This document shows, one piece after another, positions 1-25,969 of a DNA stretch of 35,039 nt. The position numbers and the translations under genes are program-made. Source of the DNA: an uncultured Lentisphaerota bacterium (GTDB lineage Bacteria; Verrucomicrobiota; Kiritimatiellia; CAIQIC01); contig CAIQIC010000192.1 of the NCBI GenBank assembly GCA_903871765.1, forward strand, positions 1 through 35,039. Direction: 5' to 3'. How positions within the stretch are numbered: the first letter of the stretch is position 1; each line of letters begins with the position of its first letter. Below the pieces are notes generated by a model. It saw only the letters and a program-made list of their open reading frames with translations, had not been told where the DNA came from and made no database searches.

Positions 1-94
1 CGCCACCACTTCTATTCGAGGGTAGAGATCAAATAAAGTGGTTTATGGATGTACGAAATTATTAACCCTTTGGAAAGCTAACATACCCCTGCCA

Positions 95-2461
95 TCACGT
101 GACCGGTTCCAGCGCCCGGATCACTTCGTCGGCGATGCTGGACCGTGTTTCGCCCTGCTGGTCTTTTTCCTTCAGCTTCCATCCGTCGCGCAGTTGCTTG
201 AGCTCCGGAAGCACGCTGAGGGCCGCGGCACCGTAGTTCTTCATTTCCTTGAGGACCTCCCTGGTCTTGCTGCCCCAGCCGTTCTGGGTGCGGATGTATT
301 CCATCATCGCGGGGAGGCCCTCGGGGATTTTATTTTTAGCCAGGAACCGGATGGCTTGGAGCCGGATGTCTTGGGCAAACATCTCCCCGCTGGGAGCGGT
401 GTCGCGGGCGACGCGGACCAGGTCCGGCGTCAGGGTCTTGAGTTCGTCGGTGGTCAGCGTCTTCATGAAGGATGCCGTGCCGAACGTGCCCAGGCCGTCA
501 TCCAAGGCCAGCAGGCGGCGGATGGCCGGGAACAGAAGCTGACGATCGACGCCCTCCACGGAGCCGGCAATGAGACCGTTGGCGCGCGGCATCTGGTCAA
601 TGAACTGGTCTCGCAGCAGGGCATAGCCGACATACTTGCTTTCGATCCCGCGTGGATCGTCCGGCTGCGTGCGCGCGACCATCTGCAGGAGCTGCGGCAC
701 GGCCTTGTGCGCCGGCGCGCCGACGCACCCGAGGGCCTGGGCTGCCTGGATGCGCAGCCACATGTCCCTGGCGGAGAGCTGGCGGATGAGTTCGTCCGTC
801 GCGGCAGCGCCGCGCCCGTCCAGTTCCTGCAGTGCGGCGCAGGCGCCGTATTGCGTTTGCAGATCGCCCGTTTGCAACAACGCGACCATCTGCGGGACCA
901 CATCATCCGGTTTCTGCGCGAGCGCCCGGGCCGCGCGATACCGCACGGTCGGGGACCAACTGGTAAGGCCTGTCAGCAGCGCGGCGATGCTCTTGTCATT
1001 GTCGCAGTCGCGGTCATGCCCATAGCGATAGCTCCGGCCGCACTCGAGGACGTTCTTCAGTTCCTTGCCGGTCAGCCGGTTCGCGGAGCTGACCCCTTGG
1101 CCCGTGATGTTGAGCTTCTGTAATGGCAGGGCATAGTGCAGGACAAACAGCCCCGTCATGTCCCAGTTGTAGTTGTCCCGCTGGATGGTGAAGAAGCTGC
1201 CATCCCAGCGCCGGGCGAGGTCATAATACCAGCGCAGTTCCTTCAGATAAGCGGCGACGGCGTCCGGGCCCGCGCGGTTGGCACCCAGGGCGCCCCACAG
1301 GAAACTGAAGTAGTTGCCGGTGTGGCCGTTCTCCTTCTCCTCGTAGGCGGCGGTGGCCATGCGCGAGAAGAACTGCGCGGCAGCCGCGTTGCCCAGAAGA
1401 TCGAAGGTTACAGCGGGGGAACCGCTCTTGCCGTTATCATCGTGCAGCATCGTGTAGGGCGGGTGATCGCCGTAGGGGATGGAACCCTTCGTGGCGTAAA
1501 AGCCGAAAAATTTCGCCGACGTGGCTACGGCCTGCTGCACCACGGGATCGGTCACGCCGCATTTTTGGCCCAGCACCAGCGACAGCCAGCAGATCAGTCC
1601 GGCTTGGTTGATGGCGCCATAGCCGCCCAAGGTGCCATTGTTCCCGTCCACCCGCATCCCATGCCCCCAGGTGCCGGTCACCCCCTGTCCGGTAGCAATC
1701 TTCGTCGTATATTCGCGGATAGCCGGCAGCACGTACTCGTCTTTTGTGGCCAGATAGTATTCCGTCAGAAACAGGTTGGCATAACCCCAGCCCCAGGCAA
1801 ACATGCCCTCCTTCAGCTCCAGTTTGAAGTCCGCCGGACCCACTTTGTGGGCATACGCCTTGACGGTCTCCAGATATTCCGGATTGCCGCTGGCCAGCAG
1901 CGCCAGGGCGTTGATGTGGCCCGGAATGTCGTTGCCGAGCCCACGCTTGACGATGGCGCGACAGCCTTCCACCACGATTTTTTTCGCTTTCTCACAACGG
2001 TACGGCGAAGTGTCGCTGTAGCTGCCCATGACCCGCAACGGGAGCGTGACTTCGCTCCGGTCGCCAGCGCGCCAACGGAGCAGGTTGAGTTTCCCCTTGT
2101 TCCTTGTTTTTTCGGCTTCGGTGATGGCCTCGCCCAGGGTCCGGCGCGCGTCGCTGGTGAATGGCTTGCTGTTCACGCCCAGAATCACATCATCCACCGC
2201 CAGCATGCCCTCGGCTGGCGATCCCTTCTCAACCGCGCTCACCAGAATCTGCCGCGACTCGGAGGTGTCGAAGCCGCGACAAAACACCCCGCCTTTGACA
2301 CCCGTGGGGCCCAGGTTCCAATACTGCAGACCGTCCTTCTTGCCGTTCTGGGTCAAGTCCGGCACGGGCGTCGGCGCTGCCTTGGCCGCCGCCTGCGCCG
2401 GGGTCACCCGCATCCAACACAGGGCCACAATTCCCAACAACACAGCGGATTTTCTGGTCAT
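95..2461 (-). CDS. Secreted PDZ / alpha-toroid / HEAT-repeat protein (DUF6288-like)
   Basis: 788 residues. A signal peptide covers about residues 1-25 (hydrophobic run, then AQAAA). A PDZ-like domain lies at about 40-145, with a VFCRGF strand, a GSPAEG turn and a DDVILGVN strand. A long helical toroid-like region follows at about 150-480, rich in paired-helix and Gly-Trp-Gly segments. HEAT-type repeats at about 490-780 are recognisable by RYRAARALAQ and WLRIQAAQALG units. The order resembles DUF6288 proteins of planctomycetes and verrucomicrobia, whose function is not established. A role in binding or processing extracellular polymer is inference from the neighbouring glycosidases. No catalytic motif was recognised. 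The gene lies 152 nt downstream of the glycosidase-like gene on the same strand. The stop is TGA at 95-97. The bases before it (1-94) show no gene. Confidence 0.8.
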   Translation of the reverse strand: MTRKSAVLLGIVALCWMRVTPAQAAAKAAPTPVPDLTQNGKKDGLQYWNLGPTGVKGGVFCRGFDTSESRQILVSAVEKGSPAEGMLAVDDVILGVNSKPFTSDARRTLGEAITEAEKTRNKGKLNLLRWRAGDRSEVTLPLRVMGSYSDTSPYRCEKAKKIVVEGCRAIVKRGLGNDIPGHINALALLASGNPEYLETVKAYAHKVGPADFKLELKEGMFAWGWGYANLFLTEYYLATKDEYVLPAIREYTTKIATGQGVTGTWGHGMRVDGNNGTLGGYGAINQAGLICWLSLVLGQKCGVTDPVVQQAVATSAKFFGFYATKGSIPYGDHPPYTMLHDDNGKSGSPAVTFDLLGNAAAAQFFSRMATAAYEEKENGHTGNYFSFLWGALGANRAGPDAVAAYLKELRWYYDLARRWDGSFFTIQRDNYNWDMTGLFVLHYALPLQKLNITGQGVSSANRLTGKELKNVLECGRSYRYGHDRDCDNDKSIAALLTGLTSWSPTVRYRAARALAQKPDDVVPQMVALLQTGDLQTQYGACAALQELDGRGAAATDELIRQLSARDMWLRIQAAQALGCVGAPAHKAVPQLLQMVARTQPDDPRGIESKYVGYALLRDQFIDQMPRANGLIAGSVEGVDRQLLFPAIRRLLALDDGLGTFGTASFMKTLTTDELKTLTPDLVRVARDTAPSGEMFAQDIRLQAIRFLAKNKIPEGLPAMMEYIRTQNGWGSKTREVLKEMKNYGAAALSVLPELKQLRDGWKLKEKDQQGETRSSIADEVIRALEPVT

Positions 2462-2517
2462 TTGTTCTCCTGGTTACTGGCCTTCTCAAAATAGACTGGA
2501 TGGTACCGCCTGCCGTA

Positions 2518-2557
2518 GAAGCGACGTCCCGTCGCTTCCGAACACGGCCAGAGGCCG
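2518..2557. repeat. Pair of intergenic hairpins (palindromic element)
   Basis: Two perfect stems sit next to each other in the 152-nt gap between the two minus-strand genes. The first is GAAGCGACG / CGTCGCTTC with a 3-nt loop (2518-2538). The second is CGGCC / GGCCG with a 3-nt loop (2545-2557). There is no T-tract on either side, so an intrinsic terminator is unlikely. The compact design resembles the palindromic intergenic elements elsewhere in this window. Effects on mRNA stability or dispersal as a repeat are inference. Confidence 0.6.
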
Positions 2558-2613
2558 CGTCCTCGCGTTTGGCTTATTCAATGGAACGTAATGCAAAAAA
2601 CAGCTCATGAGTT

Positions 2614-4737
2614 TCATTCTTCTTTTGCCGGACCGACGGGGAACGTGACGGTGCCGCCTTGCTGCGGATCCATCGGTTTGGTGCTGCCGTCCGGCGCATG
2701 GACCAGCACCGCCCGGCAATTCGCGCCCAGGGGTTTGAGCGCCAGCGTGGCGGTCTTGCCATCCGCGGCAACTTCCAGCGTCATGAAGAGCGGGCCGAAG
2801 GGCGTGGCCACGCCATTCAGCTTCGTGACCATGCCGGGCCCAAGCCACTGGGACGGCAGGCCTTCGAGCAGATGCAACTCGTCGCCGCGGTCGAGTTCGA
2901 GGAGGTGCGTGGCCAGCCGGATGAACTCGGCGGAGGCCCAGTTGTGCGGCATGTCGCCGACCTCGTGTCCGCCCTTGCCGACGGGCCGTTGCTCCTCCCG
3001 CCAGACACGCGTGGGGCAGGCGTGATTCGCATAATCATAGAGCACCTGGGCGGCTTCCCGCCCCTGCCCCTGCCAGAGCGCCGCGTGGCCGTAGAAACTG
3101 GCCGCATACGTCCAAAGGCCCTCCGCATCCCAGCCCGTTCCGAAAACCAGGCCCTGCTGTTTGGTCGCGCGCAACATGGCGAGATTGTCCTGCACCAGCG
3201 CATCGTCCTTGGCAAAGATCTGGCCGGGATAGACCGCATGCAAAAACGCCCATTGGCCCCGCTGCGGCAATTCCTTCTTTCCGGCAGCCCCCATGATCGT
3301 CGGCAGATAGCGGTTGCCATGCGGATCCGTGGCCATGTCGCGTTCAGCCGTTTTGCGGAAGGTCGCCATGAAATCGTCGTATTCCTTGCCCCATTGCGCC
3401 GCCTGTTCCTTTTTATCCAGCCATGCGGCTGCGCCGATGGCCGCCTTCAACCCAGCCAGATTCCAGTACACGTTAGAATACTCCGGGTGGTTGCCGCCGA
3501 TACCGCCATCGGGGAAGCCGGCAGGCATCAATCCGTCATCCAGTTCGGGCGGGTCAGTCCGCGACCGTTCGCGCAGGTGCCGGATCGCGGCGACCGTGCG
3601 CTCCAGCTTGGGCCAGACCGCTTCCAACCAGGCCTTGTCCTGGGTCAACAGGGCGTGGCGCGTGACCGTCCACAGGACAATACCGTTTTCCTTCCAGTAG
3701 CGGCCAATGATTTCGAAGCTGCCATCCGGTTTCTGATGGCTCAGCAGGTATTCGATCCCGGCGCGCGCGTCCTTGGCGCGGCCCACCAGGGCAGCGCTTT
3801 CCAGCAGGAACGCGCCGTCCACCACCCACAGCCCGCGATAGCACGTCGGTCCCACGTGGAAGGCCGGCTGTCCATTTTTGATTTCGCGGGCCTGCCAGAT
3901 GTTGCGGACGCAGGATTCCAGCATGCCCTGGATACCGGGGTCGGGTACTCGAAGAGTATCGAAGGGCAGGCCCGCCGTCTCCCACCAAGTGCGGGCGGCC
4001 TCGCGTTGTTTCACGGCCTCATCCATTCCCGCCAGGTTGGCCACCGGTTTGACATGGCGGCTGATGAAAAAGGCGGCCTGGTGCGACTGACCTGGCTGCA
4101 ATTTCCTGGACGCGAGTTCGATGGTAAACACCTTGTTGGAGGTGGGACCGGCCGTGACCACGGGTTCGGAGACCATGACGACCGTCTGCGTACCGATGGC
4201 CACGCACCCTTGCACCGTATCGAAGGCGACCGGGTCAACGCTCTGAATGCGAAGCACGGGCTGGCACGTGGCCTCGGCCGGCCCGGCGTTTTTCATCAGC
4301 ACCAGCAACACGGCTACCCGTGCCGGCGGCGTTGGCATATTTACCTGCTGGGCGCCATACGCCGGGATCACAAAGGTTTGTTCCAGGACTTCAACCCCGC
4401 CGGCGCTCCGCTTCCACGTCTGGACGATGGGCACGCGCGGCGAGAGCGTCGCCTGTCGCTGCCAGGCAACCCCGCCGGCCATGTCCGGCTGGATGCAGAT
4501 GCCGAAGTCCCGGAAGCCGTGCTGACGGCCGTAATCGAACAACAACTGACCTTCCTTGCCCACCAGCGTTTTATCGGGGTCGTCGGGCAGACAAATGGCG
4601 GTCTGCCACCAGAGCGGCGCATAACGGAAGTCCACGGCTGCCATGCTTTGTGTAGCGGCCGGCTGCGCGCCAACGGTGCTGCCGCCCGCCAGCAGCAGCG
4701 CCAACAACGCCAACACGGGCAGTAGTATTCGTTTCAT
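2614..4737 (-). CDS. Secreted six-hairpin glycosidase-like protein
   Basis: 707 residues. The signal peptide is unambiguous (MKRILLPVLALLALLLAGG, cleavage near GAQPA). The N-terminal part, about 35-230, is beta-rich and resembles the beta-sandwich that precedes the barrel in GH78, GH95 and related enzymes. From about 245 to 620 the protein is helical with the pattern of an (alpha/alpha)6 toroid: RNIWQAREI, a YRGLWVVDGAF segment typical of the active-site face of six-hairpin glycosidases, repeated GY/GW turns, and a late WTYAASFYGHA helix. A C-terminal beta domain follows (about 625-707). The exact GH family and substrate cannot be assigned by eye; a rhamnosidase-like or fucosidase-like exo-enzyme is plausible. 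It is followed on the same strand by the PDZ/HEAT gene and may be cotranscribed with it. Confidence 0.72.
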   Translation of the reverse strand: MKRILLPVLALLALLLAGGSTVGAQPAATQSMAAVDFRYAPLWWQTAICLPDDPDKTLVGKEGQLLFDYGRQHGFRDFGICIQPDMAGGVAWQRQATLSPRVPIVQTWKRSAGGVEVLEQTFVIPAYGAQQVNMPTPPARVAVLLVLMKNAGPAEATCQPVLRIQSVDPVAFDTVQGCVAIGTQTVVMVSEPVVTAGPTSNKVFTIELASRKLQPGQSHQAAFFISRHVKPVANLAGMDEAVKQREAARTWWETAGLPFDTLRVPDPGIQGMLESCVRNIWQAREIKNGQPAFHVGPTCYRGLWVVDGAFLLESAALVGRAKDARAGIEYLLSHQKPDGSFEIIGRYWKENGIVLWTVTRHALLTQDKAWLEAVWPKLERTVAAIRHLRERSRTDPPELDDGLMPAGFPDGGIGGNHPEYSNVYWNLAGLKAAIGAAAWLDKKEQAAQWGKEYDDFMATFRKTAERDMATDPHGNRYLPTIMGAAGKKELPQRGQWAFLHAVYPGQIFAKDDALVQDNLAMLRATKQQGLVFGTGWDAEGLWTYAASFYGHAALWQGQGREAAQVLYDYANHACPTRVWREEQRPVGKGGHEVGDMPHNWASAEFIRLATHLLELDRGDELHLLEGLPSQWLGPGMVTKLNGVATPFGPLFMTLEVAADGKTATLALKPLGANCRAVLVHAPDGSTKPMDPQQGGTVTFPVGPAKEE

Positions 4738-5121
4738 CAGGCACCACTCGATGGACGGAACTTTTGATCAACATCCGCCTTCTGCTTTTCTCAGTTGTTA
4801 CCTCTAGCGCAACGGGCGGTGAGGAGCAAGAGGGAAACCAACCACGGCCCCCCCCATGCCGCTCCCCTGCCAAAGCACACCGTCTCGTGCAACGAATTAT
4901 TTTGTTATAACCCGCAAGTATCGTTGCCGAGTTCATCGGCGTTGCGCTGTTCCTCGTGCCAGCCTTATGGCGGGGTTTTCTGGCTGTGGCCACCGGCTTG
5001 ATGGTCTTCGCCGACATGGCACGGAAAGCGGAAACAGAAGGCTGCTGATAGACAAAGACAGATTTTTCCCGCGGATATCACGAGGGGCATCGGGGTCAGC
5101 ACCGACCCCCAGCGGGCTCGG
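4738..5121. other. 384-nt intergenic region without a gene
   Basis: This lies between the GH29 stop and the start of the six-hairpin gene, both on the minus strand. I see no credible gene; the frames that stay open lack a start with a ribosome binding site or a recognisable product. It holds an AT-rich patch at about 4890-4912 that contains TATAAC read on the minus strand, but no good -35 at the right distance. There is also one hairpin near the GH29 stop, listed separately. The promoter of the downstream gene is probably here but cannot be placed. Confidence 0.6.
5092..5109 (-). terminator. Hairpin just after the GH29 stop, possible terminator
   Basis: GGGGTC / GACCCC forms a 6-bp GC stem with a 6-nt loop, 12 nt past the stop codon of the GH29 gene. 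No T-run follows on the minus strand, so this could equally be a 3-prime mRNA-stabilising hairpin or a factor-dependent stop. Confidence 0.35.
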
Positions 5122-6840
5122 TTACGGGGCCGGCTGGAGCGTCACGGCGCGCAGGTTGATGGGCGCCCAACCGTCGGCCACGGGTTTGACGATCAACTCG
5201 TACGGCTGCGCTTTGTCCAGCGTCACCGTGCCGCACTCCACCACCTGGAACTTCCCGTAATCGCCGGTCTGCGGCACCGTTACATCCAAGCTCTGACCGG
5301 CCACCTCGATGACCACGCGACTTGTGGCGCCCACGGTGGCCAGCGGCGCGCGAACGGTGAATTTGCCAGGCTGGTTGACCTTGAAGGTCCAGCGCACCGT
5401 CGCCGACGGGTTCATCCAGAAGCCCAGGTTGTCCTGGCCTTCCTTGGACTCGACCTGCGGCTCGTTGCCGGTTTTCGCCTCGGCCACGGGCAACGTCACC
5501 GTGCCGTCCGCGTTCTGAGCCAGCGGCTTTTCGATCCCCGTCAACTCGCCGGCGACGTTCAATTCCACCACCGAACAGATCTGGTCCGGCGCGTTGCCGG
5601 CCAGATGCACGGTCAGGCCGTCTTCCCCGCCGGTCACCTCGAGCTTGCGGCTGTGATCCGCCAGGAGGCGGCCTTGCTTCACCTGGACCTGCATCGGAAC
5701 ATTCAGCACACCGTCGGCAGGCCAGTTGAACACGTGCAGGTAGAGCTTGCCGGGCTGGCAGGTGATGCGACCCCAGGCCGGCGCCTTCTTAAGTGGACCC
5801 GCGGTCGCACCATAAATCGCGGCGCCATTCACCGCGAGCCACGCACCGATCTCCTTCAGGCGATCAACTTCCGGCTGGGGGATCACTCCCTCCGCCGTCG
5901 GTCCCACGTTCAGCAGATAATTTCCGCCCTTGCTGGCGATGTCCACCAGGTTGCGCAGCAGCGTTTCGGTGGACTTGAAGTTGTTGTCATACGACTTGTA
6001 GCCCCAGGTGTCGTTGATCGTCATGCACGTTTCCCAGTCGCGCCCAGGGTAGCCGCTGGCGGGGATCGATTGCTCGGGCGTCTCCGTGTCGCCCGCATAG
6101 CCGCCGCCCAGCCGATTGTTGCTGATGATTTGGGGCTGCAGTTTCATCAAGTCATGCAGTTTATCCACGTCCTCCTTGCTGATGTTGCCCGGGGTGTCCC
6201 ACCACAACACCGCCACGGGCCCGTAGTTGCTCAGGATCTCCTTCACCTGCGGGATCGCAATCTTGTTCACGTACCCGGACAGATCGCCCTCCTGCGCCTG
6301 GTCCCACCGCTCGCCGTAGATGCCGCCGCCCGGATGCCCCCAGTCCTGGAACTGCGAGTAGTAGAAGCCCAGCTTGATGTGCTCCTTGCGGCACGCCGCC
6401 GCCAATTCCTTGAGCGGATCGCGCTTGAAGGGGGTGGCGTCGTAGATGTTATAGGGGCTGGCCTGCGAGTGAAACATCGCGAAACCGTCGTGGTGTTTCG
6501 AGGTGATCACAATGTACTTCATCCCCGCATCCTTGGCGATGCGCACCCATTCGCCGGCGTTGAACTTGACGGGGTTGAACTGCGCGGCAAAGCCGGCATA
6601 GTCGGCCGAGGGGATTTTGCCGGTGTTCATGATCCACTCGCCGATCCCCCCGATCTGTTGCCCTTGCCACGTGCCGGCCGGGACCGCATACAGGCCCCAG
6701 TGAATGAACATCCCGAACTTCGCCTCGTGCCACCATTTCATCCGCGCTTGGCGCTGCCCGGCCGTCTCCTCCGCGGCACGGACCACCGCCCCACCGGCCA
6801 CCGCCACCGCCAACAATACCGCCATCGTCCACGTCTTCAT
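5122..6840 (-). CDS. Alpha-L-fucosidase, GH29, secreted
   Basis: Hydrolyses terminal alpha-L-fucosyl residues with retention. 572 residues from the ATG at 6840. This start is preferred over one 13 codons upstream because an AAGGA sits at a normal distance before it and it opens a clean signal peptide (MKTWTMAVLLAVAVAGG). GH29 hallmarks appear in order: WWHEAKFGMFIHWGLYAVP, TSKHHDGFAMFHS, LGFYYSQFQDWG, the VLWWD segment carrying the expected nucleophile (D215 in this numbering), the INDTWGY signature, and GGNYLLNVGPTAEG. The last 180 residues or so are beta-rich and include a carbohydrate-binding-like domain near the C-terminus. The general acid/base cannot be placed by eye. The gene lies 88 nt downstream of the HU gene on the same strand and may be read from its promoter. 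Confidence 0.95.
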   Translation of the reverse strand: MKTWTMAVLLAVAVAGGAVVRAAEETAGQRQARMKWWHEAKFGMFIHWGLYAVPAGTWQGQQIGGIGEWIMNTGKIPSADYAGFAAQFNPVKFNAGEWVRIAKDAGMKYIVITSKHHDGFAMFHSQASPYNIYDATPFKRDPLKELAAACRKEHIKLGFYYSQFQDWGHPGGGIYGERWDQAQEGDLSGYVNKIAIPQVKEILSNYGPVAVLWWDTPGNISKEDVDKLHDLMKLQPQIISNNRLGGGYAGDTETPEQSIPASGYPGRDWETCMTINDTWGYKSYDNNFKSTETLLRNLVDIASKGGNYLLNVGPTAEGVIPQPEVDRLKEIGAWLAVNGAAIYGATAGPLKKAPAWGRITCQPGKLYLHVFNWPADGVLNVPMQVQVKQGRLLADHSRKLEVTGGEDGLTVHLAGNAPDQICSVVELNVAGELTGIEKPLAQNADGTVTLPVAEAKTGNEPQVESKEGQDNLGFWMNPSATVRWTFKVNQPGKFTVRAPLATVGATSRVVIEVAGQSLDVTVPQTGDYGKFQVVECGTVTLDKAQPYELIVKPVADGWAPINLRAVTLQPAP

Positions 6841-7516: not shown

Positions 7517-10500
7517 ATGAACACGACCTTGACCGCCCCATCGTCCAACCATCCCGGCTTTATCACCGGACTCCTCGTCACTTTCGCCGCGATGGTGGCC
7601 GGTTCCGCCCTCAGCGCCTCGGCGGCCAGCATCGTCAACGTGAACTACACCGGCGACACACACGCCTCCATGCAGGGGATCTGGTCCTTCGACGCCGTCG
7701 CCCGCGGCAGCGCCAGCCGGGTGGCGCCGGTGGCGTATGTCGGGAACACCTGGAACGACTTCCAGACCGCCGGCGCAACCGGCACCAACCTGCTGGATTC
7801 CCTGGGTGCGCCCACCGGAGTGGGCCTCACGACGACGATGGTCGCCGGACCCTGGGCCGATTGGACCGGTCTGGGTAAGGCACGGATGTTGATTTCCGGC
7901 CTGCTGACCGGGTCCACAAATTATCAACCGATCCTCACGCTCACCGGCCTCAAGGTCAATCACACCTATGACCTTTACCTCGCCAGTGACCACAGCGACA
8001 TGAACCGGCCGCAGACTTTCCGGGTCGGGACGATGGAACAGCATATTGCGAACGGCCCCACCGCGGAGGATTGGATTGAAGGCAAAAACTATGTGCACTT
8101 TGCCGGTCTCCGGATCAACGACAGCGGAACCCTGACGGTGGAAGGGAAGACTTCGTCCGGCAGCGAGTTGATCGTGAACGGTTTTCAGTTGGTGGACAAC
8201 GACGCCCCGACGCCCAAAAGTCCAGCCATGGACATCATGACCTTCCATTTTGGCACGCTGGGCGCCGCCGCCATTTCCGGGACCAACATCACCCTGAATG
8301 TGCTGTGGGGCACAGCGGTGACCAGCCTTGCGCCCACCTACACGCTGTTCCCCCTGGCCAGCGCCATGCCGCCCTCGGGCAGCACCAACGACTTCACCAG
8401 CCCGGTCATTTATACCGTCACCGCCGAGGATTCCTCGACCAAGGCCTATCGCGTGGTGGTCAACATCCTGCCCAAAAGCGCGGCCAAGGACGTACTGGCC
8501 TGCCACTTCGAGCCCTTGGGCGCGGCGATTATTTACGGAACCAACATCATCATGTCCGTGCCGGCAAGCCAGCCGCTGACGACGCTCGCGCCCACCTTCA
8601 CGCTTTCACCCTTCGCCGCCCTCCGCCCGGCTGCGGGCAGCACCCACGACTTCACCGGCCCGGTCAACTACACCGTCACCGCGCAGGATGGCTCCACCAA
8701 GGCCTATCGGGTGACGGTGCGTCCGTACACGGCCTGGAAATATTCCGCTTCCTTGTTCATCCTGACCACGCCGGATGGGGCGCATCTGTCGGACTCTGCG
8801 TCCGAGACGAACTTCCCGATCCTGGTGCGGCTGAACAACAATAATTTTAACTTCAGCCAGGCCCAGCCGGCGGGCGAGGATCTGCGCTTCTCGACCGCCG
8901 CCGGCGCCAAGCTGTCGCATCAGATTGAACAGTGGGATGCCGCCCGCGGCACGGCCAGCATCTGGGTGAAAATCCCGGTGATCGCCGGCAACGCCCGGCA
9001 GGAAATCAAGATGTATTGGGGCCAGGCCGGCGCCGCCAGCGAATCCATCGTCTCGAATGTCTTCAGCGCCGCCAACGGCTATGTGAGCGTGCTGCACATG
9101 AACGAGCCCCTGCAGGATGAACTCGGCACGGTCATTCCCGTCAATTCCGGCACGACCCCGGCCCCCGGCATGATCGGTCAGGGCCGGCATTTTGCCTCGG
9201 GGTCGTGGGTTAATTGCGGCGACAGCATCACGAACTACCCCTACGGCGGCAGCCCCTTCACATCCGAAGCCTGGTTTTGCGCGGAACAAGGCGGGGCCGA
9301 GATCCTCTGCTGGGGGCGGTATGCCACCCGCTACAACGGCAACACCGGGGATGGCAATCTGGTGGACATAGCTTTTGGATCCCCCGCCAGTCTGGGCTGG
9401 AGTTCCGACGGCCCCGGCGGCGCCATCGCGGCCACCACGCCGGCCCTGGGGCAGTGGTATCACGTGGCGGTCACCTATGCCAACGGGCTCAGCCGAATCT
9501 TCGTGAACGGCCGGCTCGACGGCGACCGCCAAGGCGGCCCTTCGGCCATGTCCCTGTTCACCAACATCTATATGCGCATGGGCGGTTCGCGGAACTATGC
9601 CGGTGACGTGGACGAGGTGCGGGTCTCCCGGGTGGCGCGCTCGCCGGACTGGCTGCGGCTGGAATATCAGAACCAGCAACCGCTGCAAACCCTGGTGGGG
9701 CCCCCGCAGCAGCCGGGTACCGGTTTCTCAGTCACCCCCTCCGCGGTGAAGATGAACGAGGGCGCGGTGGCCAGGCTGGTCGGGCGGGCGGGCGGCGCCC
9801 AGAAAATCTACTGGACCTGCAAGCGGAACGGACAGGAATCCGTGATCGCGGTAGACCAGTTCACCTTGGATTTTGCCGCCGGCCGTGTGGTGGGCGACCA
9901 GTCGTTCGTGCTGCAGTTCAAAGCCATTTACCCCACGAGCGCGCAAACGCAGGACATCCCCGTCACGATCAAGGAAACGATTCCTGACCCGGCCTTCACG
10001 CTATCGGCGCCGGTCGCCTGGGATGGACGGCAGACGATCACGGTGACGCCGCGCGTCTCGAACAGGAGCGCCTTGCAGGCGGCCGGGGCGACCAATTTGA
10101 ATTACCATTGGAGCGTGGCGGGCATCGCCGTGACCAAGCAGATCACACCCGGGATGCTCACCCTGCTGCGTTCCCAAGGCAGCGGTCCGATGACCGTGAC
10201 GCTGGTCCTCGACAATGGCGGGGCCTTGGTCACCAATACCGCCACTATCGCTGTCAAGGAACCGGCGACGGATCCCTGGGTGGTACGGCAGCCCGAGGCC
10301 GACGAAAAACCGATGCACGGCCAATTTTACGCCCGAGACAACACCGGGTTCGGCACCGTGTATTACAACGGCACCCTGAGCAACGCGCCCAACACGGTCT
10401 TCTTGAACCTCTATGCGGATGGGGTGCTCTACACCAACCTCAGCCAAACCGTGTCCGGTAGCGCGTATGCCTTCAGCGCCCGGCTGGCGTCGGGCCTGGT

Positions 10501-11683
10501 GAAGTACAGCGTGCAGTTCGGCTCCGTGCGCGGCGGCGTGACGAACGTGTTCGACACGGTGACCAACCTGGTATGCGGCGATGCTTATCTGATTGACGGG
10601 CAATCCAACGCGGTGGCGGACAACAACAACCCGCCGTACGCCGCGTACACCAGCGACTGGATCCGCAGTTATGGCAACATGACGGGGGGCACGAACAGCG
10701 GCTGGGGCAACGCCGTGGTGTCCACCGCGCACGGCGATGCCTATCGCATCGGCTATTGGGGCATGGTCCTGGCCAGCAACCTGGTGGCTAGTTGCAACAT
10801 CCCCATCTGCATCATCAATGGCGCCGTCGGCGGCACGCGGGTTGACCAGCACCAGCGGAATGAGAGCAACCCCGAGGATGGGGACACGATCTACGGACGG
10901 ATACTGACGCGCGTGAAGGGGGCCCGGCTGACCCATGGCATCCGTGGCGTCCTGTGGCACCAGGGGGAGAACAACAGCGGCGCAGCGGCGCCCACCGGCG
11001 ACTGGGATTACAAATCGTATCAGCAATACTTCGTGGATATGTCGGCGGCCTGGAAACAAGATTACCCCAACCTCCTGCACTACTACGTCTACCAGGTCTG
11101 GCCGTTGCCCTGCGGCATGGGACCCAAAGGCGACCAGGTGCGTGAAGCGCAACGGACCCTGCCGCGGTTTTATTCCAACATGCGCATCATGTCCACCGTC
11201 GGCATGGCCACCCGCCCGGAATGGGCGCGCGGCCTCTGTCATTTCGATTGGGACGGCTATGTGATGTTCGCGGATTTGATGGCCCCGCTGGTGAAGCGGG
11301 ACAATTACGGTTTCATCCCGACCTCGGTCATCACGGCGCCGGATTTGAAGAAAGCCTACTTTACCAGCGCGCGTCAGGATGAAATTGCCCTGGAGTTCGG
11401 CCAGGCGATGGAGGCTCCGGGGAAAACCAACGCCACGGCTAATTTCTATCTGGATCTTGTCCCGAATCTGGTCACCGCGATCAGCGTGCGGGACAACGTG
11501 GTCAAACTGCAACTGCTGGGGCCCGCGACGGCCCAAACGATCGCTTACTTGGCGGACCGGGACTGGGACGGCAACCAGGCGCATCTGCTCCGGGGCGCCA
11601 ACAGGATCGCCGCACTCACGTTCTGCGAGGTCCCGATCCTCCGCGCCGCGGGGGCCCAGCCCGCGGGTGAGAAGCAGCGCTAA
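7517..11683 (+). CDS. Multidomain secreted SGNH (SASA/CE6-like) carbohydrate esterase
   Basis: 1388 residues. A signal peptide spans about 1-37. An N-terminal beta domain (about 40-225) is followed by two tandem Ig/cadherin-like repeats (about 235-405). A DUF2341 domain follows (about 415-530, FPILVRLNN and RFSTAAGAKL). A LamG/concanavalin-like domain lies at about 540-735 (GQWYHVAVTY, RIFVNGRLDG, GDVDEVRVSR). Ig-like segments reach about 1000. The C-terminal catalytic domain resembles sialate O-acetylesterase/CE6 SGNH hydrolases: GQSN with likely nucleophile S1030, NGAVGGT, WHQGENN at 1147-1153, and a CHFDWDGY segment near 1241-1248 that may carry the catalytic Asp/His. Likely role: removal of acetyl esters from polysaccharide while the lectin domains hold the polymer. 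A GGAG lies 11 nt before the ATG. The gene is divergent from HU and its stop overlaps that of the convergent next gene. Confidence 0.85.
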   Translation: MNTTLTAPSSNHPGFITGLLVTFAAMVAGSALSASAASIVNVNYTGDTHASMQGIWSFDAVARGSASRVAPVAYVGNTWNDFQTAGATGTNLLDSLGAPTGVGLTTTMVAGPWADWTGLGKARMLISGLLTGSTNYQPILTLTGLKVNHTYDLYLASDHSDMNRPQTFRVGTMEQHIANGPTAEDWIEGKNYVHFAGLRINDSGTLTVEGKTSSGSELIVNGFQLVDNDAPTPKSPAMDIMTFHFGTLGAAAISGTNITLNVLWGTAVTSLAPTYTLFPLASAMPPSGSTNDFTSPVIYTVTAEDSSTKAYRVVVNILPKSAAKDVLACHFEPLGAAIIYGTNIIMSVPASQPLTTLAPTFTLSPFAALRPAAGSTHDFTGPVNYTVTAQDGSTKAYRVTVRPYTAWKYSASLFILTTPDGAHLSDSASETNFPILVRLNNNNFNFSQAQPAGEDLRFSTAAGAKLSHQIEQWDAARGTASIWVKIPVIAGNARQEIKMYWGQAGAASESIVSNVFSAANGYVSVLHMNEPLQDELGTVIPVNSGTTPAPGMIGQGRHFASGSWVNCGDSITNYPYGGSPFTSEAWFCAEQGGAEILCWGRYATRYNGNTGDGNLVDIAFGSPASLGWSSDGPGGAIAATTPALGQWYHVAVTYANGLSRIFVNGRLDGDRQGGPSAMSLFTNIYMRMGGSRNYAGDVDEVRVSRVARSPDWLRLEYQNQQPLQTLVGPPQQPGTGFSVTPSAVKMNEGAVARLVGRAGGAQKIYWTCKRNGQESVIAVDQFTLDFAAGRVVGDQSFVLQFKAIYPTSAQTQDIPVTIKETIPDPAFTLSAPVAWDGRQTITVTPRVSNRSALQAAGATNLNYHWSVAGIAVTKQITPGMLTLLRSQGSGPMTVTLVLDNGGALVTNTATIAVKEPATDPWVVRQPEADEKPMHGQFYARDNTGFGTVYYNGTLSNAPNTVFLNLYADGVLYTNLSQTVSGSAYAFSARLASGLVKYSVQFGSVRGGVTNVFDTVTNLVCGDAYLIDGQSNAVADNNNPPYAAYTSDWIRSYGNMTGGTNSGWGNAVVSTAHGDAYRIGYWGMVLASNLVASCNIPICIINGAVGGTRVDQHQRNESNPEDGDTIYGRILTRVKGARLTHGIRGVLWHQGENNSGAAAPTGDWDYKSYQQYFVDMSAAWKQDYPNLLHYYVYQVWPLPCGMGPKGDQVREAQRTLPRFYSNMRIMSTVGMATRPEWARGLCHFDWDGYVMFADLMAPLVKRDNYGFIPTSVITAPDLKKAYFTSARQDEIALEFGQAMEAPGKTNATANFYLDLVPNLVTAISVRDNVVKLQLLGPATAQTIAYLADRDWDGNQAHLLRGANRIAALTFCEVPILRAAGAQPAGEKQR
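8218..8724 (+). repeat. Tandem repeat of two Ig-like domains inside the esterase
   Basis: Two consecutive units of about 84 residues each (8218-8472 and 8473-8724) share the same order of motifs: FHFGTLGAA versus CHFEPLGAA, SLAPTYTL versus TLAPTFTL, GSTNDFT versus GSTHDFT, YTVTAEDSSTKAYRV versus YTVTAQDGSTKAYRV. This is a clear internal duplication of a beta-sandwich module of the kind used as a spacer or glycan-binding unit in secreted enzymes. Confidence 0.85.
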
Positions 11684-13008
11684 GGCGTCGCGGGCTGGCG
11701 CGCGGCGGCGGGGCCGTCGGCCAGCAGTTCCGGATAGCGCGCCAAGGTGTCGTACATATACAGCGCCGATCCGAAGTGGCAACTGAACCAGATTTCGTCG
11801 CCCCAGGTCGGACCAACGAGATTGGCCCCGTCATCGCGCATCCAATACGTGACCAGCGCGCAGGCTTGGATGGCGCGCTGCTTGAAAGCCGCCTCGCCGG
11901 TGGCCGCATGGAAATCCGCCAGGAGCGCCGCCCAGTGCAGCGTGTGGACGCCCATGGTGGCGAAACAAACCTTCTGTTCCCGCAGCCCTTCGGCCGGCGC
12001 CCAGTCCTTGTTTTTCTCTACGAACTCCCGGGCAATCCAGTCGTGCAGTTTGCAGGCCAGCGGCAGATACTCCGGGTGGTCCGCGCGGTGTGCGATCAGC
12101 CAGCGGGCGGTGTCAATGCAGTCCCAATTGGTTCGATTCTCCCGGCCATGCTCCGGCGTGACGTCTTCATAGAAGCCATTCCAGCGCATGTTCGTCACCG
12201 GGCCTTCGAGGATCCAGCGCAGCGCCTTGTCCCGGGCTCCACGCCAGCGTTTACCGTCGGGCTTGTCCAGTTCCTCGAACAACATGACCGCGTAGATCGC
12301 CGACGAGGTGTAGGCCTCACGCACGGCGCCGGTCTTGGGGTTGACGCGAAACGGCCAGTTGCCTTCCGGCAACTGCGTTTTGGCCAGGGTGGCAGCCACG
12401 GTCTCGGCCGCCTGGCGATAGCACGCGTCGCCCGTCGCCCCGGCCAGTTCCAGCATGGCCAGCGCCATGATGGCCGGCTTGTCGGTCATGATCGCATCGC
12501 CATCCACGTTGCCACCCCCCTGCCCCTTGTGCACAGTGCTGTAGAAAAGAGATCCGAACATGCAATCGGCCGGCGTGCGCCGCGCGAGATTCCAGTCTGC
12601 CAGTTGCCGGGCCCGGGCCAGGCCTTCCGGGTCGCCCGCATAGCGCCACTGGGCCAGGAACGCGCGGATAAACAGCGCATGATGGAAGGCCGGATAGACG
12701 GTGTCGGCATTGAGCGGATGACCGACACCCAGCTTGCGTTCGGGGTTGGCCAGGGCGTAATTCACATAGCCCGGCACGGGCTGGCCGGTTTCATCCTGGT
12801 AGGCGTTGCCGCTGGACCAGCCGTGATCGAGATCCTGCAACACGAACCGATAGGATCGGGCCAGGTACTGGGGATAAGGCATGCGGGGCACCAGCAGCCC
12901 GTCCTGGTCCCGCAGGTACGACATCGCCCCTGTAACGCCCACGGGCCAAGCCATAGCGGCGATGAAGAGCCACCTGGCGATCAAGCCGCCCCAGCGTATC
13001 CTTTTCAT
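11680..13008 (-). CDS. Secreted alpha/alpha-toroid protein, glycosidase- or lyase-like
   Basis: 442 residues from the ATG at 13008, chosen because it opens a signal peptide (MKRIRWGGLIARWLFIAAMAW, cleavage near TGA); an in-frame start 13 codons upstream gives a less typical leader. The mature part is almost wholly helical with repeated aromatic-rich helix pairs: HHALFIRAFLAQWRYAGD, MALAMLELAGATGD, AIYAVMLFEEL, WDCIDTARWLIAHR, MGVHTLHWAALLADFH, WFSCHFGSALYMYDTLARYPEL. This is the pattern of (alpha/alpha) toroid enzymes such as GH88/GH105-type or pectate-lyase-like proteins, but I cannot assign a family or catalytic residues. It is last in the minus-strand block 20379-11680 and separated from the fusion gene by a strong palindrome. 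Its TAG stop overlaps the TAA of the convergent esterase gene. Confidence 0.7.
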   Translation of the reverse strand: MKRIRWGGLIARWLFIAAMAWPVGVTGAMSYLRDQDGLLVPRMPYPQYLARSYRFVLQDLDHGWSSGNAYQDETGQPVPGYVNYALANPERKLGVGHPLNADTVYPAFHHALFIRAFLAQWRYAGDPEGLARARQLADWNLARRTPADCMFGSLFYSTVHKGQGGGNVDGDAIMTDKPAIMALAMLELAGATGDACYRQAAETVAATLAKTQLPEGNWPFRVNPKTGAVREAYTSSAIYAVMLFEELDKPDGKRWRGARDKALRWILEGPVTNMRWNGFYEDVTPEHGRENRTNWDCIDTARWLIAHRADHPEYLPLACKLHDWIAREFVEKNKDWAPAEGLREQKVCFATMGVHTLHWAALLADFHAATGEAAFKQRAIQACALVTYWMRDDGANLVGPTWGDEIWFSCHFGSALYMYDTLARYPELLADGPAAARQPATP

Positions 13009-23291: not shown

Positions 23292-23692
23292 ATCCGGCTG
23301 GTTGCGCCGGGCGATTCTTGCCCCCAGCCATCCGATAGCGCAGCAAACCTAGCCGATTTCCAACACCCTCAGCTTCTTGATCTTTCCACGGTTTTCCCTC
23401 TTGCTGTCAGCCCAGCTTCCGGTATCATATTCCGCGTTGCGCATAAAATGTGGATCGGGGTTGGTTCGCGCACATGCAGCGGATGATGAGGGCGTGAAGA
23501 TGCGGCAGGATCTGGGACAGCAGGCAGCGTACACCGGCCGGGAGCCGAAGCCCGGTTTGAGGCATAGCAGCCCTCTGCCAATATTCCCATATGCCTCAGC
23601 TTTCCTCAAAAACCCCTTTTTTCGACATTTATTTGAGTCATATTAGCGCCGACGGGAATTTTCGCCGCAACATGTTTGAGGAATAATACCTG
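23292..23692. other. 401-nt intergenic region between the methyltransferase and nuclease-like genes
   Basis: No convincing gene is seen. A hairpin CCGGC/GCCGG with a 7-nt loop (23294-23310) starts right after the methyltransferase stop and may end that operon, though no T-tract follows. Base composition falls towards the right, where T-rich runs lie at about 23595-23640. The nuclease promoter probably lies there, but no good -35/-10 pair could be placed. A minus-strand open frame at 23349-23609 has no recognisable product. Confidence 0.55.
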
Positions 23693-24313
23693 TTGAACGA
23701 AGAAAGATTACAACTCATGTCAACAAATGTGAAGAATACATACCCAGAGCCGAAGGAAGCGCTTTATCGTATTCAACGCGCACTTGCTGGTCATGTGAGC
23801 TATCTCGCAGCATGTGAAACGAACAAGACATTTAGCGAATATATTCTTTATGAGCCAATCCTTCGCATCTTGATGATGCGCGGATTCTCCGTGCAGTGTG
23901 AATACATATGTCCTGGCATAGCCAAGAGAGGTCGTCGTGGCGACTACAAGAAACTCGATTTTGAGGCCAACAGGCGAAGGGTGAGATTTGCGATGGAGGT
24001 GAAATGGCCTCGGGATGGAAAGCGCGTCCTTGACGCGCGAAAGGATCACAAGAAGTTGGTTGCCTTCAAGAGACGGTACACGTCGGCGCAAACCTTTCTA
24101 TGCCTCTTTGGCAGATACGATCACTTGAAACGAATAGAAATAGTGCCTAATCAATTCGTCGAATATTTGGACCCAATTTATGCCCTCTTTCGACGTACAC
24201 AATTTGGATGCCGGATCTTCGAGTTAAAAACGCCCAACATCCGCCTGAGCTCGTACGGATCGTCCGTCACGCCGCCTACGGGGCAGGTGGCGCGCCGGCC
24301 GCCCGCCGGCTAG
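23693..24313 (+). CDS. Small PD-(D/E)XK nuclease-like protein
   Basis: 206 residues if read from the TTG at 23693, which has a GAGGA ten bases upstream; the ATG at 23717 (198 residues) has a weaker site. A restriction-nuclease-like core is visible: helix EYILYEPILRILMMRGF with E54, then GDYKKLDFEA with D89, then RFAMEVKWPR with E102-V-K104. The D, x12, E-x-K arrangement fits a PD-(D/E)XK active site. Basic runs (KRGRRGDYKK and RKDHKKLVAFKRR) could bind DNA. The known family is not recognised. One 60-nt block in this gene counts 40% GC, against 63% in a nearby fucosidase block. The last 20 or so codons turn abruptly GC-rich and run through an attC-like structure, ending at a TAG inside it. A helicase gene begins 24 nt later. 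Confidence 0.7.
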   Translation: MNEERLQLMSTNVKNTYPEPKEALYRIQRALAGHVSYLAACETNKTFSEYILYEPILRILMMRGFSVQCEYICPGIAKRGRRGDYKKLDFEANRRRVRFAMEVKWPRDGKRVLDARKDHKKLVAFKRRYTSAQTFLCLFGRYDHLKRIEIVPNQFVEYLDPIYALFRRTQFGCRIFELKTPNIRLSSYGSSVTPPTGQVARRPPAG

Positions 24314-24327
24314 GAGGGGCGTTGGGT
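24232..24327 (+). mobile_element. Integron attC-like recombination site
   Basis: The outer pair GCCCAAC (24232-24238, fits RYYYAAC) and GTTGGGT (24321-24327, fits GTTRRRY) are complementary with one G-T wobble. The inner pair CCTGAGC (24244-24250) and GCTAGG (24309-24314) is complementary except for one unpaired G, the place of the extrahelical base in attC sites. The two spacers are 5 and 6 nt. Three smaller GC hairpins (24255-24267, 24271-24291, 24294-24310) fill the centre. Total length is 96 nt. The predicted G/TT recombination point (24321/24322) lies 16 nt before the helicase ATG, the usual place for a cassette gene to begin. No integrase or second attC was seen. Confidence 0.55.
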
Positions 24328-24337
24328 CTGATGATAA

Positions 24338-25720
24338 ATGAATCTCTACCAATGGCAAAATGACGCCCTGAACGCTTGGATAAAGGCGGGCAGGCGCGGA
24401 ATCGTAGAAGCCGTCACAGGGACGGGCAAGACCATTGTGGGCATCGCGGCCATCGCGGAAGCATCCGCGCGTGACGGATACAGATTTCTTCATCCGCTTG
24501 TCGTGGTTCCTTCCACCGTGCTCATGAATCAGTGGCATGATCGCGCTGCCGCACTTTTGCCCGGCGTCAAGCTGGGACGTATCAGCAAGGATCACAAAGA
24601 CACCTTTGCGAATAGCGACATTTGCATTGGGATTATCAATTCCATCGTCAGATGCCTGCCCGATCTATTCGCTCACACCTCACGCAATCCGTCGAAGTTC
24701 ACAACCATGCTGGTCGCAGATGAATGCCACCACTATATTGACGCGCCTGTGTTTAGCAGGTTGATTCGCTACCCATTCCGATTCACCCTCGGGCTCTCAG
24801 CCACGATAAGACCAGCGATTCCATTCGAAGTGGACGGTCTCGGACGGATTATTTACGAGTATTCTTTCGACCAAGCGGGCAAGGACGGGCTGGTTCCGCC
24901 CTTCGACTTGGTCAACTGTTCAACGCATTTTACCTCTGCCGAGGAGCGGGAGTATCTGGATTTGACAGACATGATTAGCGACCAGTTCGAGAAGGTATTT
25001 GACCTGTTTCGGGATCAGTTGAGAAATGTTCCGGACGAATATCTTTTCAGAAAGCTCCGTCAATTGATGATGATTGACGACGAGACAGAAGACCCTAGCA
25101 TCAAACGCCTGTTTATTCTGTTGTTTAAGCGCGCGTCCCTTTGTTATCGAGCCACAAACAAGATGTCGTTAGCGCTGCAATTGATTCTCCTCATGCTTAA
25201 GCATGGGAAGAAAGTGCTAGTTTTCTTTGAACGGATCGAGTCAACCGAAGAGGTCGCTGACATCGCGCTGGACACAAGCCAGCGACTTCAGAAACAAGTC
25301 CTTAGCGCCGGAGTTTCATGGTGCAAGGTCTATCACAGCCAGCTTTCGGTCGCCGACAGGAAGCTGGTTCTGGAAGAATTCAAACAGCCAGGCCCGAAGG
25401 CGCTGCTCTCCTGTCGCAGTCTCGATGAGGGACTCGACATCCCGGAGATTGACTGCGCTATTCTCGCCGCCTCAACTCAATCGCGGCGTCAAAGAATTCA
25501 GCGTATCGGCCGTGTGCTGCGAAAAGGTGAAGGCAACAAGCGGTCCATCATAGTGACACTTTTCGTAAGAGGATCAGGTGACGAGAATGTTTGCGCCGAT
25601 GACGCAGAGGTTTTCGGAGGACCAGTAACGATTCATTCACAAAACGAGGGCGGATGCTTCAAGATAGTTGAGCAATTACTAATGCAGCAGGACCCAACCA
25701 GAGGGTCCAGCTTATCGTGA
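24338..25720 (+). CDS. SF2 DEAD/DEAH-type helicase (XPB/RadD-like)
   Basis: 460 residues. An ATP-driven nucleic-acid translocase of superfamily 2. Motifs in order: an N-terminal YQWQ segment in the Q-motif position, EAVTGTGKT (Walker A, K31), VVVPST (Ia), VADECHH (Walker B, DECH at 128-131), LSATIRP (III), VLVFFERI (IV), SLDEGLDIPE (V) and QRIQRIGRVLRKGEG (VI, QRIGRVLR 388-395). It is near-minimal for two RecA folds and has no extra nuclease domain. AGGAGGGG lies 18 nt before the ATG, farther than ideal; in-frame TAA at 24335 rules out an earlier start. Low GC like the gene before it (one 60-nt block counts 43%). Function is probably anti-phage DNA processing together with the nuclease-like protein, an inference from position only. 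Confidence 0.9.
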   Translation: MNLYQWQNDALNAWIKAGRRGIVEAVTGTGKTIVGIAAIAEASARDGYRFLHPLVVVPSTVLMNQWHDRAAALLPGVKLGRISKDHKDTFANSDICIGIINSIVRCLPDLFAHTSRNPSKFTTMLVADECHHYIDAPVFSRLIRYPFRFTLGLSATIRPAIPFEVDGLGRIIYEYSFDQAGKDGLVPPFDLVNCSTHFTSAEEREYLDLTDMISDQFEKVFDLFRDQLRNVPDEYLFRKLRQLMMIDDETEDPSIKRLFILLFKRASLCYRATNKMSLALQLILLMLKHGKKVLVFFERIESTEEVADIALDTSQRLQKQVLSAGVSWCKVYHSQLSVADRKLVLEEFKQPGPKALLSCRSLDEGLDIPEIDCAILAASTQSRRQRIQRIGRVLRKGEGNKRSIIVTLFVRGSGDENVCADDAEVFGGPVTIHSQNEGGCFKIVEQLLMQQDPTRGSSLS

Positions 25721-25797
25721 CGCATTGGCGGGTTCACGAACGCTGACCCTTAACGTTCGCAAAGTATGTCACATGACGAGCAATAGCCACGGCGCTT

Positions 25798-25932
25798 GCT
25801 ACTCTGGTCCTTCCTCCTGCTTCGCACCTTTGTGTTGCCGCTGCTCTGTCTTTGCGCCCGGCAAGATGCCGGACGCTGCGGGCTGCTCGTGCTTCGTAGC
25901 GAAGCTGGCGCTTCGCCACTTCGCAGAGTAGC
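25798..25932. repeat. Structured palindromic region at the right edge of the defence island
   Basis: The 249-nt gap between the convergent helicase and glycosidase stops holds no gene. Outer arms GCTACTCTG (25798-25806) and CAGAGTAGC (25924-25932) are perfect reverse complements about 117 nt apart. Inside are GCTTCG/CGAAGC and GCGAAGC/GCTTCGC stems with short loops and a CCGGCAAGATGCCGG hairpin. It may work as a two-way transcription stop, although T-tracts are lacking, or be a dispersed repeat. Confidence 0.55.
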
Positions 25933-25969
25933 AGAAGCCCGCGCTCCCCATTGCGTTAATGTCCCGTCT

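What the first reader, a model, noticed from the sequence alone, without database searches (positions are those of the whole stretch)
24232..24327. Integron attC-like site between two putative defence genes
The sequence shows nested complementary boxes: GCCCAAC with GTTGGGT, and CCTGAGC with GCTAGG leaving one unpaired G, with 5- and 6-nt spacers and a hairpin-rich centre. These match the known R and L box rules of attC sites. The predicted cut lies 16 nt before the helicase ATG and the nuclease stop is inside the structure, as in many cassettes. If real, the nuclease-like and helicase genes are separate cassettes of an integron without a visible integrase.
Basis: partly seen in the sequence, partly recalled or inferred. 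Interest (0 to 1): 0.78.

Follow-up and report, generated by a model that had tools for sequence, protein, structure and literature searches.

The report
Integron attC sites flanking defence-like genes
The flagged sequence is very probably a genuine integron recombination site, and a second one lies at the end of the next gene, so a nuclease-like gene and a helicase gene sit here as separate movable cassettes away from the integrase that the same genome carries elsewhere; it is a new example of a known kind of element.

Summary
The finding holds. The boxes are at 24232-24327 as described. A covariance model built from 21 attC sites of class 1 cassettes, other bacteria and relatives, with the window left out, matches the site full length (27.8 bits, E 0.003 over 344 kb). 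A model from this genome's and relatives' attCs scores it 38.7 bits (E 1e-6), and the first site 22.2 bits (E 0.004). The outer box of the second site, ACCCAAC, is the exact complement of GTTGGGT at the start of the helicase cassette, as an excised circular cassette requires; most cassettes in this genome obey this rule (7 of 11 perfect against 1.2 in shuffles). The helicase is therefore a discrete 1434-bp cassette (24322-25755); the nuclease cassette ends at 24321, its start unproven. No integrase is in the window, but the genome has an IntI gene (373 bits) and about 30 attC candidates. The helicase resembles PbeA; a relative sits beside PglZ and BrxL of a BREX locus. It is an integrase-less cassette pair (CALIN) with probable, untested, defence cargo.

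The parts
24232..24327 (+). attC site 1 (the finding). R'' 24232-24238, L'' 24244-24250, L' 24309-24314, R' 24321-24327; predicted crossover between 24321 and 24322
   Evidence: 27.8 bits; 22.2 bits; bottom-strand fold
R'' 25692-25698, L'' 25704-25711, L' 25742-25748, R' 25755-25761; predicted crossover between 25755 and 25756
   Evidence: 19.2 bits; 38.7 bits, E 1e-6; z -2.6 for the bottom strand
24322..25755 (+). helicase cassette, 1434 bp, with both ends defined
   Evidence: R'' of site 2 is the exact complement of R' at the cassette start
23693..24321 (+). nuclease-like cassette; 3' end defined, 5' end only a candidate (G^TTGAAC at 23692)
   Evidence: GTTGAAC fits GTTRRRY but matches only 5 of 7 of the expected GTTGGGC; GC falls to 40-46% at 23550-23924
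23693..24313 (+). 206-aa ORF, nuclease-like only by a D...EVK motif seen by eye; a likely ATG start lies at 23717; stop inside attC 1
   Evidence: no family match; fold prediction failed, pLDDT 30
24338..25720 (+). 460-aa SF2 helicase, PbeA/XPB-like; stop inside attC 2

Best explanation
The window holds a two-cassette array without an adjacent integrase (a CALIN) inside a stretch of carbohydrate-enzyme genes. Each cassette carries one gene whose stop codon lies inside its own attC. The folded bottom strand of each attC would be bound by an IntI integrase, cut between G and TT, and joined to attI, another attC or a secondary GTT site, so that each gene can move on its own. The integrase can act in trans; this genome encodes one elsewhere. 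Shown by computation: both attC sites, both ends of the helicase cassette, an intI gene in the genome, and other cassette arrays. Inferred: that this IntI inserted these cassettes, that the sites still recombine, and that the cargo is anti-phage.
For: Two attC models that did not contain the window both match site 1 full length (27.8 bits; 22.2 bits), and the second gives site 2 at E 1e-6. Eight relatives without a full IntI gave a single hit of at least 27.8 bits in about 23 Mb. The sites are on the same strand 1.4 kb apart, and each contains the stop codon of the gene before it. The helicase cassette's own R'' and R' match 7/7; in this genome 7 of 11 cassettes do, against 1.2 expected. The genome has an IntI over the family cut-off and arrays of up to six attC sites. 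The helicase is absent from the other sampled genomes of its class and the region is lower in GC than its right flank, as expected of acquired DNA.
Against: Site 1 scores lower than most attC sites of this genome and has C in place of G as extrahelical base. The nuclease cassette has no exact 5' box. No empty site could be shown. No intI lies on this contig, and the intI on C446 is cut by the contig end. IntegronFinder's own model was not run.
Confidence: 0.92

Rival explanations
1. Site 1 is a chance GC-rich imperfect palindrome between two adjacent genes, or a terminator, and the helicase alone ends in an attC.
For: Folding energy is unremarkable for this GC content (z -1.6); chance matches to the boxes occur in coding DNA; the score with the clade model is modest (22.2 bits).
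Against: Full-length match to a model that had neither the window nor its genome. Its R' box GTTGGGT is exactly what site 2 requires at the start of the helicase cassette. There is no run of T for a terminator.
Confidence: 0.05
2. Nuclease and helicase work as one two-gene defence system, and the attC between them is incidental to function.
For: Same strand and close spacing. A relative of the nuclease N-terminus lies beside an argonaute operon and a helicase relative beside BREX genes.
Against: Helicase relatives have neither this nuclease nor an attC beside them. The sites make the two genes separately mobile, so the pairing is probably recent.
Confidence: 0.12
3. The pair is a dead relic of an integron whose platform was lost; the sites no longer recombine.
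For: No integrase on the contig; a second IntI in the genome is a 142-aa fragment; in-frame stops occur in several relatives' IntI genes; site 1 is weaker than most attCs of the genome.
Against: The stems of both sites and the 7/7 box match of the helicase cassette are intact, and the genome keeps one long IntI reading frame.
Confidence: 0.3

Closest known systems
CALIN: cluster of attC sites lacking an integron-integrase (PMC9024848)
   Same: Two same-strand attC sites, each ending a single-gene cassette, with no integrase within the 35-kb contig.
   Different: Only two cassettes, one with an unproven start; lies in an uncultured lineage.
Defence cassettes of chromosomal and mobile integrons (Darracq 2025, Getz 2025 and Kieffer, cited in PMC12444791; reviewed in PMC12409362)
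   Same: Single-gene cassettes with defence-type cargo.
   Different: Cargo here is a PbeA-like helicase and an unclassified nuclease-like ORF; no activity has been tested.
PbeA, helicase of a phosphorothioation-linked defence system (PADLOC) and TIGR04095 DNA phosphorothioation restriction enzyme
   Same: The helicase core aligns over most of the window protein (E 7e-56; E 6e-44).
   Different: The window protein lacks roughly the first 250 positions of the PbeA model, is far below the TIGR04095 cut-off (151 against 600 bits) and has no Dnd or Pbe partners beside it.

Membership tests
attC site | Outer boxes RYYYAAC and GTTRRRY, complementary | tested here: met
   Site 1 6/7 in place. Site 2 4/7 in place, but 7/7 with its own cassette start; its R' in place (GTTCGCA) departs from consensus
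attC site | Inner L boxes with an extrahelical base, at spacers of about 5-6 nt | tested here: met
   Spacers 5 and 6 nt and one bulge after three pairs in both sites; the bulge base of site 1 is atypical
attC site | Covariance-model match | tested here: met
   with models made here; IntegronFinder's model not available
attC site | Bottom-strand recombination by IntI | not testable with these tools
   Needs a conjugation or in vitro assay
CALIN | At least two attC sites close together | tested here: met
   24232-24327 and 25692-25761, same strand
CALIN | No integrase nearby | tested here: met
   Genome-wide IntI search has no hit on contig C192
Complete integron | intI and attI beside the array | tested here: not met
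   No IntI on this contig; attI was not searched for as such
PbeA | Full-length match and Pbe or Dnd partner genes | tested here: not met
   Only the helicase core matches; neighbours are glycoside hydrolases and genes of unknown function
PD-(D/E)XK nuclease | Profile or fold match | tested here: inconclusive
   No profile match; fold model unusable; a D...EVK motif seen by eye
Anti-phage defence | Protection from phage | not testable with these tools
   Only the contexts of relatives point to it

The most novel reading that the evidence does not exclude
In this uncultured lineage the integron scatters single cassettes and small arrays to many chromosomal places through secondary sites, and here that process has assembled, from two independently mobile cassettes, an undescribed nuclease-helicase defence pair.
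Probability: 0.12. Interest if true: 0.6.

Novelty: new member of a known kind. Interest (0 to 1): 0.4.

Why it matters
It places a rare defence-like helicase and an unclassified nuclease-like gene among the cargo of a chromosomal integron system in an uncultured lineage where such cassettes are little studied. It also shows a cheap test of cassette boundaries, the match between a cassette's own two outer boxes, which works even in a fragmented genome with no integrase in view. The nuclease-like gene, which has almost no known relatives, is a fair candidate for a new defence gene.

Tried and rejected
Chance hairpin: set aside after two covariance models and the second site. The box scan alone was too permissive: it gave 27.3 inside a protease gene on the IntI contig (L039 740-814), so that apparent 'attC next to intI' was not used. 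A search of the genome with the site's DNA found no family of repeats, so it is not a dispersed palindrome of the REP type. Rfam found nothing. Empty site: homologues of the flanking genes occur in G001-G005 but not together, and homology stops at the end of the upstream gene, so no empty site could be shown. Nuclease homologues: none in plasmids, phages or viral contigs and one 42-residue match in a genome of the same phylum. Single-sequence fold prediction of the nuclease failed. A long imperfect palindrome at about 25778-25958 was first considered as the helicase's attC and dropped when the models placed that site at 25692-25761.

Full report
What is there. It lies between a 206-aa ORF (23693-24313) and a 460-aa SF2 helicase gene (24338-25720). 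The ORF's stop codon is inside the site, and the predicted G^TT crossover is 16 nt before the helicase ATG. The consensus RYYYAAC/GTTRRRY and the crossover between G and TT are as published (PMC3518468).

Is it more than chance? Folding energy alone does not settle it: at 75% GC the bottom strand folds only 1.6 standard deviations below shuffles, although the best fold is the attC hairpin. A simple box-and-stem scan found no equal score in first-order (dinucleotide) simulations, but found one inside a protease gene, so it is not decisive either. I therefore built an attC covariance model from 21 sites: class 1 plasmid cassettes, Thiodictyon and Kovacikia plasmids, and arrays near IntI genes of relatives. 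The window and its genome were not in it. It matches the site over its full length with 27.8 bits, E 0.003 over 344 kb and E 0.035 over the whole 3.9-Mb genome. Eight relatives without an IntI over the cut-off (G003, G009, G013, G021, G028, G031, G046, G048) gave one hit at or above that score in about 23 Mb.

A second attC. The same model reported a weaker hit at 25692-25761, across the helicase stop. A second model was built from 26 attC sites of this genome's other contigs and of relatives, again without the window. Its base pairs covary strongly (0.516 against 0.146 in shuffles). It gives the second site 38.7 bits, E 1e-6, and the first site 22.2 bits, E 0.004. The second site has the canonical register: ACCCAAC, 5 nt, GGT-C-CAGC, loop, GCTGACC, 6 nt, GTT, with the usual G extrahelical on the bottom strand.

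Cassette logic. In a circular cassette the R'' box of the attC pairs with an R' box made of the attC's final G and the first six bases of the cassette; in an array these lie at the two ends of the cassette. For the helicase cassette, R'' ACCCAAC is the exact complement of GTTGGGT at its start. This genome's other arrays (contigs C138, C261, C312) follow the rule: counting the window pair, 7 of 11 pairs are perfect against 1.2 in permutations, and none of 20,000 permutations reached 7. None of 25 other R' boxes listed from the genome is GTTGGGT. In place, the last site matches only 4 of 7, as expected if the bases after the cut come from the target; the last site of the C312 array behaves the same way. 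So the helicase gene is a cassette of 1434 bp, 24322-25755. The nuclease-like cassette ends at 24321. Its start is not fixed: GTTGAAC at 23692 fits the consensus, and base composition drops near there, but it matches only 5 of the 7 expected positions.

The integrase. There is none in the window. The genome has an IntI on contig C446 (372.8 bits, over the family cut-off, cut by the contig end) and a 142-aa fragment on C292, with an attC candidate nearby. Of 56 genomes searched, this one included, 21 have an IntI over the cut-off. About 30 attC candidates lie on some 17 contigs of this genome, some in arrays of three to six, some single and well inside contigs. The window locus is thus one of several cassette loci away from the integrase. 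It fits the published definition of a CALIN, at least two attC sites without an integrase (PMC9024848), and such clusters can be mobilised in trans by a functional IntI (PMC12444791). In a draft genome some loci that look separate may be pieces of one array; the window is not, because it has 23 kb and 9 kb of other genes on its two sides.

The cargo. The helicase is related to PbeA and to the phosphorothioation restriction helicase, and to XPB/RAD25 among solved structures. It was found in no other of 288 genomes sampled from its class. The nearest relatives found are 47-49% identical. One stands downstream of PglZ and BrxL genes of a BREX locus. None has the nuclease-like gene or an attC beside it. 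The nuclease-like ORF shows a D...EVK motif but no family match and no usable fold model. A 42-residue relative of its N-terminus, 71% identical, sits in a short ORF beside a prokaryotic argonaute operon. Defence is the likely role, but that is inference.

Known or new. Defence genes in integron cassettes are known (Darracq 2025 and Getz 2025, cited in PMC12444791; reviewed in PMC12409362). Integrons are known from many phyla, Verrucomicrobiota among them (PMC8618304). Insertion of cassettes away from the integron, at attG sites, is known too (Loot 2024, cited in PMC12444791). This is therefore a new member of a known kind.

Limits. IntegronFinder's model was not available, and the models here have short calibrations. 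Recombination and phage protection are untested. The intI gene on C446 is incomplete in the assembly.

Noticed in passing
G000 contigs C138 (L097 8160-9988), C261 (L095 8910-12082), C312 (L096 7587-10635): Cassette arrays of five, six and four attC candidates in the same genome, with small genes of mostly unknown function; attC singles on C473, C5, C451, C508, C209, C189 and C208.
   Followed up: partly
L125 (G484:C19) 1-5336: A 47%-identical relative of the helicase is encoded downstream of PglZ and BrxL of a BREX locus, two small ORFs in between.
   Followed up: partly
L067 (G300:C1) 8800-12101: An 87-aa ORF whose first part is 71% identical to the nuclease-like protein lies beside a prokaryotic argonaute and a TIR/APAZ-type partner gene; the rest of the ORF diverges, possibly a truncated copy.
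   Followed up: partly
window 25778-25958: Long imperfect palindrome (about GAGCAATAGCC...CTACTCTG with CAGAGTAG...ATTGC) between the helicase cassette and the next gene; purpose unknown.
   Followed up: no
window 23550-23600: Inverted repeat TGAGGCATA/TATGCCTCA just upstream of the nuclease cassette, near the point where GC content falls.
   Followed up: no
G002:C16, G005:C41, G007:C10, G037:C1: IntI genes of relatives interrupted by in-frame stop codons, so several integrons of this group look inactivated.
   Followed up: no
G015 and G027: Genomes with clear attC hits but no IntI over the cut-off: cassette loci without a recognisable integrase.
   Followed up: no
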